53,662 nt of DNA. Origin: Gammaproteobacteria bacterium. GTDB lineage: Bacteria > Pseudomonadota > Gammaproteobacteria > Steroidobacterales > Woeseiaceae. Under the pieces are notes generated by a model. It made no database searches, had not been told where the DNA came from, and saw only the letters and a list, made by a program, of their open reading frames with translations. This document shows, in pieces, positions 11,924 through 14,321 of this stretch. The DNA is taken from assembly GCA_029863705.1 (NCBI GenBank), contig JAOTUU010000004.1:1-53662 (forward strand), read 5' to 3'. Within the stretch, counting starts at the first letter, position 1. Each line of letters begins with the position of its first letter. The position numbers and the translations under genes were made by a program.

Positions 11924-11933
11924 GCTCGATGGC

Positions 11934-12008
11934 AAAAAAAGAAAGGCGCCGGAGTACTGAATTCGAAAAAAAACAGCGGGCCATCCGACACGGATGGTCT
12001 CCGGCGCC
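11934..12008 (-). terminator. Large stem-loop with T-rich tract (minus strand)
   Basis: A perfect 10-bp stem, GGCGCCGGAG (11945-11954) with CTCCGGCGCC (11999-12008), is followed on the minus strand by TTTCTTTTTTT (11944-11934). It encloses a second perfect hairpin, CCATCCG-ACA-CGGATGG (11981-11997). The shape fits a rho-independent terminator ending the transcript that runs leftward from the sigma-54 promoter at about 12390. Confidence 0.65.
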
Positions 12009-12136
12009 CCAAGTGAACGGCACGGGGGGGTGCCGCCGGGTCGTTTCGACCCGCTTAACCGACATTTCTGCCGGCAGACTTCGGCGACGAAATTCCAGGT
12101 TCTCGGGGGAGAGGATCCTGTGTTTGCGCCGCCGAA
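11945..12136 (-). ncRNA. Candidate structured RNA / 3' untranslated region
   Basis: About 190 bases hold at least six consecutive perfect stems and no convincing gene: 11945-11954 with 11999-12008 (10 bp), 11981-11997 (7 bp), 12018-12023 with 12030-12035 (6 bp, G-rich loop), 12037-12043 with 12047-12053 (7 bp, TTT loop), the palindrome TCTGCCGGCAGA at 12067-12078, and 12080-12086 with 12130-12136 (7 bp). The region lies directly downstream of the 51-residue peptide gene on the minus strand and ends in a terminator. It could be a long structured 3' UTR or a small RNA released from it. Strand and boundaries are inferred. No known RNA family was recognised. Confidence 0.5.
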
Positions 12137-12157
12137 AGGGGTTCTTTGTCTTGCTAA

Positions 12158-12313
12158 CTACCCTTGATCTGTGGTCGCGGCGACAGAACTCAAGGTGACA
12201 TCGCTATGACCTGCTTCATCAGCAAGCGCTGTGCTTGCGGCAGCGCCTACCCCGAAGAGCACAATCAAAGCGCCGATGAGCGCGAGGCCGTTTTCAATCT
12301 TTCTGCTGTACAT
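12158..12313 (-). CDS. 51-residue exported peptide precursor under a sigma-54 promoter
   Basis: A small minus-strand gene begins at ATG 12313, preceded by AAGGGAA about eight bases upstream, and ends at TAG 12158. The product has a basic N-terminus (M-Y-S-R-K), a hydrophobic core (A-L-I-G-A-L-I-V-L-F) and a signal-peptidase I site after S-T-A-L-A at residue 31. The mature part would be only 20 residues, starting D-E-A-G-H-S-D. I do not recognise the peptide. It faces away from the PAS-PAS-sigma-54 activator gene, and the sigma-54 promoter points at it, so it is the likely target of that activator. Its role (signal, inhibitor, or a carrier for the downstream structured RNA) is unknown. Confidence 0.72.
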   Translation of the reverse strand: MYSRKIENGLALIGALIVLFGVGAAASTALADEAGHSDVTLSSVAATTDQG

Positions 12314-12337
12314 GGTCTTATTCCCTTAAATTGGTGA

Positions 12338-12354
12338 TGCAGCAAGCTGCTGCA
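12338..12354 (-). repeat. Hairpin in the leader of the peptide gene
   Basis: TGCAGCA and TGCTGCA form a perfect 7-bp stem with a three-base loop. It lies between the predicted sigma-54 transcription start (about 12377) and the ribosome-binding site of the 51-residue peptide gene, so it could influence translation or RNA stability. Confidence 0.5.
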
Positions 12355-12387
12355 TGTATCGAATCTGTATGTATACAACGTACTTAC

Positions 12388-12403
12388 TGCACAACTCGTG
12401 CCA
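12388..12403 (-). promoter_or_regulatory. Sigma-54 (-24/-12) promoter
   Basis: Read on the minus strand, TGGCAC-GAGTT-GTGCA matches the sigma-54 consensus TGGCAC-N5-TTGCA with one mismatch, and the invariant GG and GC have the required spacing. It would start transcription near 12377, about 63 bases before the peptide ATG. Confidence 0.72.
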
Positions 12404-12451: not shown

Positions 12452-12502
12452 ACGGAATTCCGTAAATAACGAAAAACCGTGATATTATTTACGAAATACC
12501 GT
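12452..12502. promoter_or_regulatory. Three 12-bp repeats, candidate enhancer for the sigma-54 activator
   Basis: ACGGAATTCCGT (12452-12463), ACGAAAAACCGT (12469-12480) and ACGAAATACCGT (12491-12502) share the consensus ACGRAAWWCCGT; the first is a perfect palindrome. They lie at about -75 to -125 from the predicted sigma-54 start, the usual place for upstream activating sites. They also lie just before the activator's own ATG, so they may serve both enhancer activation and autoregulation. Confidence 0.6.
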
Positions 12503-12515
12503 ATATACTCCCCCG

Positions 12516-14321
12516 ATGACGACACTCGACGATTACCAGTGGCTGTTCCGCAAGTCGCCCGCAATGGCAACGTCCATTGGCGAAGATGGCGTGTACCTCG
12601 ACGTGAACGATGCGTTCCTTGAGCGTCTGGGCTACGAACGCGAGGAAATGGTAGGTCGTCGTCCCGGCGACTTCGTCACACCGGAGTCGGCGCGTCGTAT
12701 CGAGGAAGAATTCTTGCCGGTCCTGCGGCGCCTTGGAAAGCTGGAGAACAAGCCCATCGAATTTGTCGCAAAATCCGGCGAGCTTGTCGAGTGCGTGACG
12801 AACTCACTGGTCGAATACGATCCGGGCGGCAACTATGTCAGAACTGTTGCGCTATACAGCGAGATTGCCGACCAGGCGAGGCTTAACTTCAAGTACCGGC
12901 AACTTTATCGATCGACGCCCGCCATGCTGCACACGGTAGATAAGGACGGCAACATTGTCACCGTTACAGATCACTGGTTGCAGAAACTCGGCTATCAGCG
13001 CGATGAAGTCGTGGGGCGGCCGATTACGGATTTTATGACCAAGACTGATCAGCGACGATTTACCGCAGGTCGCTTGCAGGAATTAATGCTGCAAGGCGAA
13101 TTCAACAACGATGCACGCCAGCTTGTGGCCAAAGACGGTCGCGTTATTGATCTCCTCGTGTCAGCAATCGCACATCGTGACGAAAGCGGCGAAGTCGACC
13201 AGCTATTGGTCGCGTCCAAAGACGTTTCACAACGCAATCGCGCCGAACGTGAATTGCGAGACTCGCTCGCGGAGAACGCACGTTTGCGGGAGGAACTCGA
13301 GCGCGAACGCGACTATCTCCGTGAGGAAGTCAATGTTGCGATGAATTTCGGCCACATGGTTGGCACAAGCCATGCGTTGCAGCGCATGCTCAAAAGAGTA
13401 GAAGCGGTTGCAGAGACACCTGCGAGCGTGTTGCTTCAAGGTGAGTCTGGTGTCGGTAAGGAACTAGTCGCGCACGCAATTCATGCGCGAAGCCCGCGTG
13501 CAGGCGGTCCTCTCGTAAAGGTGAATTGTGCGTCGATCCCTAAGGAGCTTTTCGAAAGCGAGTTTTTTGGACACATAAAAGGCGCGTTCACAGGCGCACA
13601 TCGCGACCGTATTGGCCGGTTCCAGCTGGCGGACGGCGGTACGATCTTTCTCGATGAGGTTGGTGAAATACCGCTTGAACTACAAAGCAAGTTGCTGCGC
13701 GTGTTACAGGAAAGCGAATTTGAGCGCGTTGGTGACGACGTTACCCGGTCGGTGGATGTCCGCGTAGTCGCGGCGACCAACAAGAACCTCGAGCAGTTGA
13801 TCGTAGATGGCGAATTTCGCGAAGACTTGTTTTATCGGCTTAGCGTCTTCCCGGTTGACGTACCGCCATTGCGTGAGCGTGAAGAAGACATCATCCAGCT
13901 TGCGCAACATTTCCTGGAAGTAACCTGCAACGACTTCGGGCGAGAACAAATGACACTAACCCGTGCGCAGGCTGAGAATCTCCTCGGTTACAGCTGGCCG
14001 GGAAATGTTCGGGAACTCAAGAACGTAATAGAACGTGCGGTGATTTTATCGCCCGGGAATGTCTTGCGCCTTGATCTATCCATGCCTAATCTAAGTGTTG
14101 TCGAGACAAACGTCGATGTAAAAGTCGCAGCGGATAGACCCGAAATCATGACCGAGAAAGAAATGCGAGCATTTCAAAAGCAGAATACCGCGGCAGCCCT
14201 CAAACAGACGGGCTGGCGCGTATCTGGTCCCGAAGGAGCCGCTGAATTGCTGGGCGTCAGACCAACAACGCTTGCGGATAGAATTCGCACGTACGGCTTG
14301 CAGAAACCAACTCGGCGGTAA
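12516..14321 (+). CDS. Sigma-54-dependent transcriptional activator with two PAS domains
   Basis: This is a 601-residue enhancer-binding protein. Two PAS domains come first (about residues 8-115 and 128-240), then a short coiled coil (about 240-275). The AAA+ domain follows, with Walker A GESGVGKE near 309, the sigma-54-contacting GAFTGA near 355 and Walker B GTIFLDE near 375. A FhlA-like HTH (GAAELLGVRPTTLADRIRTY) ends the protein. There is no receiver domain, so it probably senses a ligand or redox state directly through PAS; no cofactor is evident. The ATG lacks a Shine-Dalgarno sequence and a TATACT element (12504-12509) sits close to it, so a leaderless message is possible. Its likely target is the divergent peptide gene. 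Confidence 0.9.
   Translation: MTTLDDYQWLFRKSPAMATSIGEDGVYLDVNDAFLERLGYEREEMVGRRPGDFVTPESARRIEEEFLPVLRRLGKLENKPIEFVAKSGELVECVTNSLVEYDPGGNYVRTVALYSEIADQARLNFKYRQLYRSTPAMLHTVDKDGNIVTVTDHWLQKLGYQRDEVVGRPITDFMTKTDQRRFTAGRLQELMLQGEFNNDARQLVAKDGRVIDLLVSAIAHRDESGEVDQLLVASKDVSQRNRAERELRDSLAENARLREELERERDYLREEVNVAMNFGHMVGTSHALQRMLKRVEAVAETPASVLLQGESGVGKELVAHAIHARSPRAGGPLVKVNCASIPKELFESEFFGHIKGAFTGAHRDRIGRFQLADGGTIFLDEVGEIPLELQSKLLRVLQESEFERVGDDVTRSVDVRVVAATNKNLEQLIVDGEFREDLFYRLSVFPVDVPPLREREEDIIQLAQHFLEVTCNDFGREQMTLTRAQAENLLGYSWPGNVRELKNVIERAVILSPGNVLRLDLSMPNLSVVETNVDVKVAADRPEIMTEKEMRAFQKQNTAAALKQTGWRVSGPEGAAELLGVRPTTLADRIRTYGLQKPTRR

What the first reader, a model, noticed from the sequence alone, without database searches (positions are those of the whole stretch)
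11945..12136. Dense run of perfect stems with no gene
Six stems of 6-10 bp or palindromes in under 200 bases, one enclosing another, next to a terminator. Chance stems of this number are unlikely, and frames here look non-coding. Location downstream of a sigma-54-driven small gene is reminiscent of sigma-54-controlled small RNAs such as Qrr or CrcZ, though no sequence match is seen.
Basis: partly seen in the sequence, partly recalled or inferred. Interest (0 to 1): 0.7.

Follow-up and report, generated by a model that had tools for sequence, protein, structure and literature searches.

The report
Sigma-54-driven small RNA with C-rich loops
The stems are the 3' part of a conserved, apparently undescribed RNA of Woeseiaceae bacteria, made from a promoter beside its own sensor protein, which probably controls messenger RNAs by pairing its cytosine-rich loops with their ribosome-binding sites.

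Summary
The minus strand of 11945-12136 folds far better than shuffles (z -4.83, 0 of 200). It is the 3' half of a predicted ~440-nt transcript in a Woeseiaceae genome: sigma-54 site (12403-12388), 51-aa ORF, five stem-loops, terminator ending near 11934. Stems change with compensation while two C-rich loops (core UCUCnCCCCC; CCCCCC) stay: 92.8% of cells pair (78.2% shuffled) and 22 of 30 pairs have double changes. A covariance model finds it in 66 of the 73 same-genus genomes listed. In 21 of 22 more distant loci the stems look unrelated but C-rich-loop hairpins remain (29 against ~2.5 in shuffles). The divergent PAS-PAS-AAA+ activator has paired palindromes beside this promoter and, in this genome, nowhere else. 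Best reading: a dedicated sigma-54 sensor makes a C-rich-loop riboregulator acting on G-rich ribosome-binding sites, working like 6C/B11, CcsR or GsrN, with a leader peptide. No Rfam family matches. Expression, signal and targets are untested; one candidate target was examined and rejected.

The parts
11945..12136 (-). Structured RNA domain, stem-loops P1 to P5 (the finding)
   Evidence: fold z -4.83; for P1-P4, 92.8% of cells paired and 191 double-changed cells over 45 sequences
12080..12136 (-). P1: long hairpin; C-rich loop 1 has UCCCCC at 12110-12105 (family core UCUCnCCCCC)
   Evidence: fold; loop has CCCC in 45 of 45 sequences; arm-swap -29.8 against -20.3 +/- 0.65 kcal/mol, 0 of 10000 (40 sequences)
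12058..12075 (-). P2: small hairpin; loop has GGA in 33 of 45 sequences but not in the window
12037..12053 (-). P3: CGGGUCG-AAA-CGACCCG hairpin; compensatory changes in relatives
12017..12036 (-). P4: hairpin with C-rich loop 2 (CCCCCC at 12029-12024); near-invariant stem
   Evidence: loop has CCCC in 43 of 45
11934..12008 (-). P5: intrinsic terminator, 10-bp outer stem (11945-11954 with 11999-12008) enclosing a hairpin (11981-11997), then T tract 11944-11934
   Evidence: relatives: long form in 24 rows that reach the end, short-loop form in 10, one row (L047) cut by a contig end
12158..12313 (-). Leader ORF, 51 aa, hydrophobic signal-peptide-like N-terminus, no Pfam or NCBIfam match
   Evidence: codon-position diversity 0.40/0.28/0.60
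12388..12403 (-). Sigma-54 promoter (-24/-12); predicted start about 12377
   Evidence: a similar site 109-136 bases from the activator start in 42 of 42 loci L016-L057
12451..12503 (.). Three palindromes ACG-N6-CGT (12452-12463, 12469-12480, 12491-12502): probable enhancer (UAS) of the activator
   Evidence: the double site occurs once in G000
12504..12509 (+). TATACT, possible -10 of the activator gene 6 nt before its ATG, next to the third palindrome (possible autorepression)
   Evidence: inference from sequence; TATA-like stretch before the activator start in 34 of 36 genus loci
12516..14321 (+). Divergent PAS-PAS-AAA+ sigma-54 activator (601 aa), GAFTGA motif, no receiver domain found

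Best explanation
The region is the riboregulatory 3' domain of a sigma-54-dependent transcript. SHOWN by sequence comparison: (1) a conserved sigma-54-type site with palindromic enhancer-like sites, next to a divergent PAS-PAS-AAA+ activator; (2) a small signal-peptide-like ORF; (3) compensatorily changing hairpins that display two conserved C-rich loops; (4) an intrinsic terminator. INFERRED: (5) the activator senses an unknown signal through its PAS domains and drives this promoter, probably as its main or only target; (6) the C-rich loops pair with G-rich tracts at or near ribosome-binding sites of trans mRNAs and block translation or change mRNA stability, as described for B11/6C and GsrN; (7) Hfq may help, given the U-rich terminator tail; (8) the 3' domain may be cut from the peptide mRNA by an RNase, as CcsR is; (9) the peptide is a second product whose role is open.
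For: Fold z -4.83. Over 45 sequences 92.8% of cells pair (shuffled 78.2%; slid structures 24-47%), 191 double-changed cells against 52 shuffled, 22 of 30 pairs doubly changed against 15 shuffled (alignment fitted to the model). Swapping arms between species agrees: P1 and P3 pair with their own arms better than any of 10000 permutations. Loop 1 has CCCC in 45 of 45, loop 2 in 43 of 45; the ten core columns of loop 1 are 81-100% identical against a mean of 70% for P1+P2 stem columns. The model finds 72 of 107 family genomes, 66 of 73 listed for the genus, including ones of 1.4-1.5 Mb. In 22 more distant loci, 21 have C-rich-loop hairpins, 29 in all, against 2.5 in shuffles and 2 on the opposite strand; by the looser measure, 20 of 22. 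L091 and L092 have no leader ORF and the hairpins follow the promoter at once. The double palindrome occurs once in G000; in 41 genomes 35 have it at this locus, while the 12 sites elsewhere do not exceed the backward control of 27 (my count). G043 lacks both a close activator orthologue and the RNA. Hfq in 30 of 31 genomes. Literature, passages only: PMC10470900, PMC12395582, PMC5869019.
Against: No expression data and no validated target. GGGGGAGAG-N3-10-ATG gives 46 rows in 46 genomes, its mirror 21, but both resemble Shine-Dalgarno sites. The one recurrent candidate, an aldehyde dehydrogenase, is absent from the window's genome and keeps the same site in G043, which has no RNA hit: rejected. 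The window's own copy failed the strict hairpin scan, as did L026 and L044: flanks of the pyrimidine run pair (7 of 11 bases unpaired against the 70% asked) and P4 refolds with its neighbours in the short context used. Averaged over its whole length loop 1 is only slightly more conserved (77%) than the stems (70%). P1's own arm is the strictly best partner in only 15 of 40 sequences and P3's in 4 of 41. P4's stem hardly varies and gives no covariation evidence.
Confidence: 0.7

Rival explanations
1. The hairpins are only a stabilising 3' UTR and terminator of the small-peptide mRNA; the peptide is the sole functional product.
For: The leader ORF shows a codon-like pattern and a hydrophobic small ORF was found in nearly all loci; the last stem is a terminator.
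Against: A stabilising stem need not keep its loop, yet the C-rich loop cores are kept and stems change. L091 and L092 keep the C-rich hairpins without such an ORF. The peptide varies from 30 to over 100 aa.
Confidence: 0.13
2. CsrA/RsmA sponge: GGA motifs in the P2 and P3 loops titrate CsrA.
For: P2 loop has GGA in 33 of 45 and P3 in 28 of 45; 58 GGA hairpin loops against 8 in shuffles in 41 genus-type sequences; CsrA in 26 of 31 genomes.
Against: The window's own P2 and P3 loops and those of its near relative L059 have no GGA. In the 22 distant loci GGA loops are near chance (10 against a mean of 5.7, largest 10). L048 and L049 lack P2 and P3 in the folds (by eye) yet keep C-rich hairpins. 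CsrB/RsmZ-type RNAs carry many more GGA loops (recalled).
Confidence: 0.06
3. Decoy for a protein that binds C-rich single strands (for example Rho or a cold-shock protein) rather than a base-pairing RNA.
For: Loops are C-rich and the C run varies in length between sequences, as a protein site might allow.
Against: The C-rich-loop sRNAs described in the passages read act by base pairing; the core UCUCnCCCCC is more specific than a bare C run.
Confidence: 0.08

Closest known systems
6C RNA / B11 (Actinobacteria)
   Same: Two stem-loops whose loops are runs of cytosines, with an intrinsic terminator; loops pair with G tracts at RBSs (passages).
   Different: No Rfam match; Gammaproteobacteria; sigma-54-type promoter and divergent activator; leader ORF; here the C-rich loops are not the terminator loop, whereas in M. 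marinum B11 loop-3 is.
CcsR / cuckoo RNAs with CcaF1 (CIN1 locus, Alphaproteobacteria)
   Same: One transcript carrying a small protein followed by sRNAs and a Rho-independent terminator (passages); C-rich loops (recalled).
   Different: Leader peptide is not DUF1127 (no Pfam match); loop core UCUCnCCCCC, not CCUCCUCCC (recalled); sigma-54-type instead of RpoHI/RpoHII promoter; no Rfam match.
GsrN (Caulobacteraceae)
   Same: Six tandem cytosines in an exposed loop direct target pairing; the loop is the most conserved part (passages).
   Different: Under sigma-EcfG; no leader ORF mentioned in the passages read.
Qrr / LuxO (Vibrio)
   Same: Sigma-54-dependent sRNA next to its activator gene (recalled).
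   Different: Activator has two PAS domains and no receiver; LuxO model 296 bits against a cut-off of 800; no Qrr match in the Rfam scans.
CrcZ/CrcY with CbrB (Pseudomonadaceae)
   Same: sRNA from an RpoN promoter activated by an enhancer-binding protein (passages).
   Different: No AANAANAA motif in the window transcript (motif recalled); exposed loops are C-rich.

Membership tests
6C RNA (Rfam) | match to the Rfam covariance model | tested here: not met
   not reported at gathering for the window, nor at E<=1 in 7 loci, nor at E<=10 for 11925-12400
6C RNA (Rfam) | two hairpin loops with runs of about six cytosines | tested here: met
   CCCC in P1 loop 45 of 45 and P4 loop 43 of 45
CcsR / cuckoo (CIN1) | upstream DUF1127 small protein | tested here: not met
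   no Pfam or NCBIfam family for the 51-aa ORF at E<=0.001
CcsR / cuckoo (CIN1) | RNase E processing of a protein-sRNA precursor | not testable with these tools
   needs RNA
Qrr | Qrr covariance model and LuxO activator | tested here: not met
   not reported; LuxO 296.1 bits against cut-off 800
CrcZ/CrcY | several AANAANAA motifs (recalled) | tested here: not met
   0 in the window transcript; 0 or 1 in each of 42 loci
CsrB/RsmZ-type CsrA sponge | multiple GGA hairpin loops (recalled) | tested here: not met
   none in the window's P2/P3 loops, though 33 and 28 of 45 sequences have them
sigma-54-dependent sRNA (general kind) | conserved -24/-12 site and enhancer-like sites upstream | tested here: met
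   42 of 42 loci; palindromes
sigma-54-dependent sRNA (general kind) | transcription that depends on RpoN and the activator | not testable with these tools
   needs an experiment
C-rich-loop base-pairing sRNA (general kind) | loops pair with G-rich RBS tracts of mRNAs | tested here: inconclusive
   46 against 21 pattern rows; the one recurrent candidate was rejected

The most novel reading that the evidence does not exclude
A one-sensor, one-promoter system found in several families of one order: a PAS-sensing sigma-54 activator whose sole DNA target is a bifunctional gene. That gene makes a secreted or membrane peptide plus a C-rich-loop RNA that represses many mRNAs through their ribosome-binding sites, so a single enhancer-controlled switch resets translation genome-wide. 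It would be a gammaproteobacterial, sigma-54 counterpart of actinobacterial 6C and alphaproteobacterial CcsR that arose independently.
Probability: 0.4. Interest if true: 0.75.

Novelty: new variant of a known kind. Interest (0 to 1): 0.63.

Why it matters
None of the papers listed by the ten searches reports an sRNA in Woeseiaceae (the lists are capped). The system has a testable input (PAS activator), a nearly unique DNA site, one conserved transcript and clear candidate seed loops. It also suggests that C-rich-loop regulators (6C, CcsR, GsrN and this one) arose repeatedly under different sigma factors: 21 of 22 distant loci show C-rich-loop hairpins on stems that look unrelated.

Tried and rejected
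Rfam: no family in the whole window; only sub-threshold hits for two of seven relatives (mir-322 in L097, BsrG in L091) and for the element alone (GlsR25, 13.5 bits against a gathering score of 100).

Target search: GGGGGAGAGTGACGCATG stands in five genomes; four of these loci were examined and encode the same aldehyde dehydrogenase. Rejected as a target: the gene is absent from G000, the same site stands in G043, which has no RNA hit, and the site differs in G017, G022, G009 and G042 (in five of the eleven loci the start could not be read). It may simply be coding sequence of the gene before it (impression, not tested).

C-rich leader of the activator: the window has CTCCCCCG just before the activator's ATG (12508-12515). 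By eye it is not conserved in the loci, so it was treated as coincidence.

RNAalifold on the plain MAFFT alignment of 41 sequences recovered only P3 and P4 (10 pairs, 3 with double changes), because P1 arms differ in length. I therefore used arm-swapping and a covariance model built from 16 well-aligned sequences.

Rows dropped: of 59 loci with a hit, ten were identical duplicates; of the 49 distinct ones eight (L048, L049, L050, L068, L073, L075, L079, L080) were left out of alignment A1 as diverged or lacking P3/P4 in their usual form. All eight were offered to the model: L048, L068 and L080 matched; the other five did not at E<=0.1. In one search the P2 arms were chosen by folding each sequence, so the P2 result (-11.3 against -6.9) is biased and not relied on; one sequence (L051) was too short for the P1 test.

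G255, the only hit outside the family, has the same score and contig place as L063; its genome has 6% contamination, so the contig may be misbinned.

Full report
OBSERVATION. The stems are real and lie where reported. The minus strand folds at -93.4 kcal/mol, z -4.83, with none of 200 shuffles as good; the plus strand is weaker (z -2.45). On the minus strand the fold is P1 (12136-12080), P2 (12075-12058), P3 (12053-12037), P4 (12036-12017) and P5 (12008-11945), followed by a T tract at 11944-11934.

SURROUNDINGS. Upstream on the same strand is a 51-aa ORF (12313-12158) with no Pfam or NCBIfam match, and before it a sigma-54-type site TGGCACGAGTTGTGCA (12403-12388). Divergent to it is a 601-aa PAS-PAS-AAA+ sigma-54 activator (12516-14321) with a GAFTGA motif (read) and no receiver domain found; no NCBIfam equivalog shown passes its cut-off (best NorR, 367 bits against 476, 25 of 34 families shown). 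Between the two genes are three palindromes ACG-N6-CGT (12452-12463, 12469-12480, 12491-12502), about 80-120 bases upstream of the predicted start (about 12377), the usual place of an enhancer (recalled). The third stands next to TATACT, 6 bases before the activator's ATG; a TATA-like stretch is there in 34 of 36 genus loci. So the activator may repress itself and its mRNA may be leaderless (inference).

ORIGIN. Record titles of the relatives name Woeseiaceae, Woeseia and other Gammaproteobacteria, almost all MAGs. That these are typical of marine sediment is recalled.

CONSERVATION IN THE GENUS. DNA comparison with 40 genomes found matches in 15, own included; the 14 others fall within window 12052-11932 (P3 to the terminator) at 75-84% identity. 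Using the activator as anchor (59 of 60 genomes have some homologue), I took 42 loci, 36 of the genus and 6 of other families (L016-L057). All 42 have a sigma-54-type site 109-136 bases from the activator start, and 35 of the 36 genus loci match the RNA by iterative profile search; the exception, L044, is cut by a contig end within P4, and G022's full copy is L058.

COVARIATION. A covariance model of P1-P4 from 16 sequences matched 45 of 74 sources at E<=0.1, once in the window (many sources were distant loci). On that alignment 92.8% of cells pair (78.2% shuffled), 191 cells changed on both sides (52 shuffled), 22 of 30 pairs have a double change (15 shuffled), and structures slid by 1-3 columns fall to 24-47%. 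This alignment is fitted to the model, so I also swapped arms between species: P1 own arms -29.8 kcal/mol against -20.3 +/- 0.65 permuted (40 sequences), P3 -11.2 against -8.3 +/- 0.31 (41 sequences), 0 of 10000 permutations each. The own arm is the strictly best partner in 15 of 40 (P1) and 4 of 41 (P3), as expected where close relatives share arms. P4's stem hardly varies and says nothing either way.

LOOPS. The P1 loop holds CCCC in 45 of 45 sequences and the P4 loop in 43 of 45; the ten core columns of loop 1 are 81-100% identical while P1+P2 stem columns average 70%; averaged over all its columns loop 1 reaches 77%. In 41 sequences there are 81 hairpin loops with CCCC, at least one in each, against 15 in shuffles. 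P2 and P3 loops often carry GGA (33 and 28 of 45) but not in the window or its near relative L059.

RANGE. In 107 family genomes the model finds 72. Counted from the listing, 66 of these are of the window's genus and 6 of other genera; 7 genus genomes are listed without a match, and the 15 unmatched genomes not listed appear, from the order of the list, to be of other genera. Each has one match except G022, whose two matches lie at contig ends. Three of the seven genus genomes without a hit (G001, G005, G047) carry diverged versions (L049, L050, L048). G043 lacks a close activator orthologue as well (best E 1.2e-97 against 7.6e-275 or better elsewhere in the genus). Among 246 genomes of the order 51 match at E<=0.01, only one outside the family (G255, possibly misbinned). 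Recognisable sequence ends there, but the arrangement does not: of 22 more distant loci with the activator, 21 have at least one stable hairpin with a C-rich loop downstream of the sigma-54-type site, 29 in all; shuffles give 2.5 and the opposite strand 2 (the miss is L103). The same strict scan found 33 of 36 genus loci (shuffles 4) and missed the window's own (L016), L026 and L044; there the flanks of the pyrimidine run pair, leaving 7 of 11, 9 of 13 and 7 of 11 bases open against the 70% asked. Stems look unrelated between the distant loci while loops read CUCCCCC or similar (by eye). In L091 and L092 no leader ORF was found and the C-rich hairpins start right after the promoter.

REGULON. 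The double palindrome ACG-N6-CGT-N5-ACG-N6-CGT occurs once in G000, at 12452-12480 (reported on both strands because it is palindromic), and in 37 of 41 genus genomes. By my count of its rows there are 47 sites: 35 lie at the activator/RNA locus, one per genome, and 12 elsewhere (one of them, in G119, could not be placed relative to an activator). The backward control gives 27 sites, so the 12 are no more than chance. Four genomes have none. Single palindromes elsewhere would be missed. The activator thus looks dedicated to this promoter.

LEADER PEPTIDE. Its first 34 alignment columns show diversity 0.40, 0.28 and 0.60 at codon positions 1, 2 and 3 (43 of 45 loci, ATG ORFs chosen by a protein pattern), as expected of a coding gene. 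Length varies from 30 to over 100 aa; the N-terminus is hydrophobic in the genus loci (where the most hydrophobic candidate was picked).

MECHANISM. Sensor to sigma-54 promoter to transcript is inferred from anatomy. The step from C-rich loop to target is by analogy: B11/6C loops pair with G tracts at RBSs and loop mutations abolish regulation (PMC10470900 and PMC12395582, passages); GsrN's six cytosines direct pairing with katG (PMC5869019, passages); in R. sphaeroides a small protein and the CcsR sRNAs share a transcript cut by RNase E (PMC10253847, passages). Hfq is present in 30 of 31 genomes and CsrA in 26 of 31. Target evidence is weak: GGGGGAGAG-N3-10-ATG gives 46 rows (45 sites; 10 for its backward control) and the mirrored GAGAGGGGG gives 21 (24 for its control) in 46 genomes, but G-rich Shine-Dalgarno sites would do the same, and several of the 30 sites translated lead only short frames. 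The one recurrent gene was rejected.

WHAT IT IS NOT. No Rfam family; no CrcZ-type motifs in the window transcript; not LuxO-Qrr; not DUF1127-CcsR.

PRIOR REPORTS. Ten searches of the held open-access library listed no paper on an sRNA of Woeseiaceae or on a sigma-54 C-rich-loop sRNA with a divergent PAS activator. I saw capped listings and the passages named above (also PMC6292655 on CrcZ) and nothing more; most subscription papers are not held.

VERDICT. A real, conserved and, as far as these searches reach, undescribed RNA element; very likely a sigma-54-controlled, C-rich-loop riboregulator with a leader peptide. Structure, promoter and conservation are well supported; targets, signal and expression are not tested.

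Noticed in passing
L052-L057, L083, L084, L086, L087, L089, L090, L096-L098: In 14 of the 20 order-level loci with a leader ORF the peptide ends in Arg-Gly just before the stop, despite little other similarity; meaning unknown.
   Followed up: no
L099, L106 (L099's record is titled Nitrosomonas sp., L106's uncultured Nitrosomonas sp.): A related activator has a sigma-54-type site at the same distance, but the candidate divergent ORF resembles a small secreted EF-hand protein (by eye) and no C-rich hairpin was found.
   Followed up: partly
window 12504-12516: TATACT lies 6 bases before the activator's ATG, next to the third palindrome, suggesting a leaderless, self-repressed mRNA; a TATA-like stretch is there in 34 of 36 genus loci.
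   Followed up: partly
window 12058-12075 and 12037-12053; alignment A3: Loops of P2 and P3 carry GGA (CsrA-like) in 33 and 28 of 45 sequences, but not in the window or L059.
   Followed up: partly
window 11945-12008; alignment: The terminator has two forms in the genus: a long one with a nested hairpin in its loop, and a short hairpin in 10 loci (L023, L029, L030, L032, L033, L035-L038, L040).
   Followed up: partly
L063 / G255: The only RNA match outside the family sits on a short contig of a genome with 6% contamination; possible misbinning.
   Followed up: no
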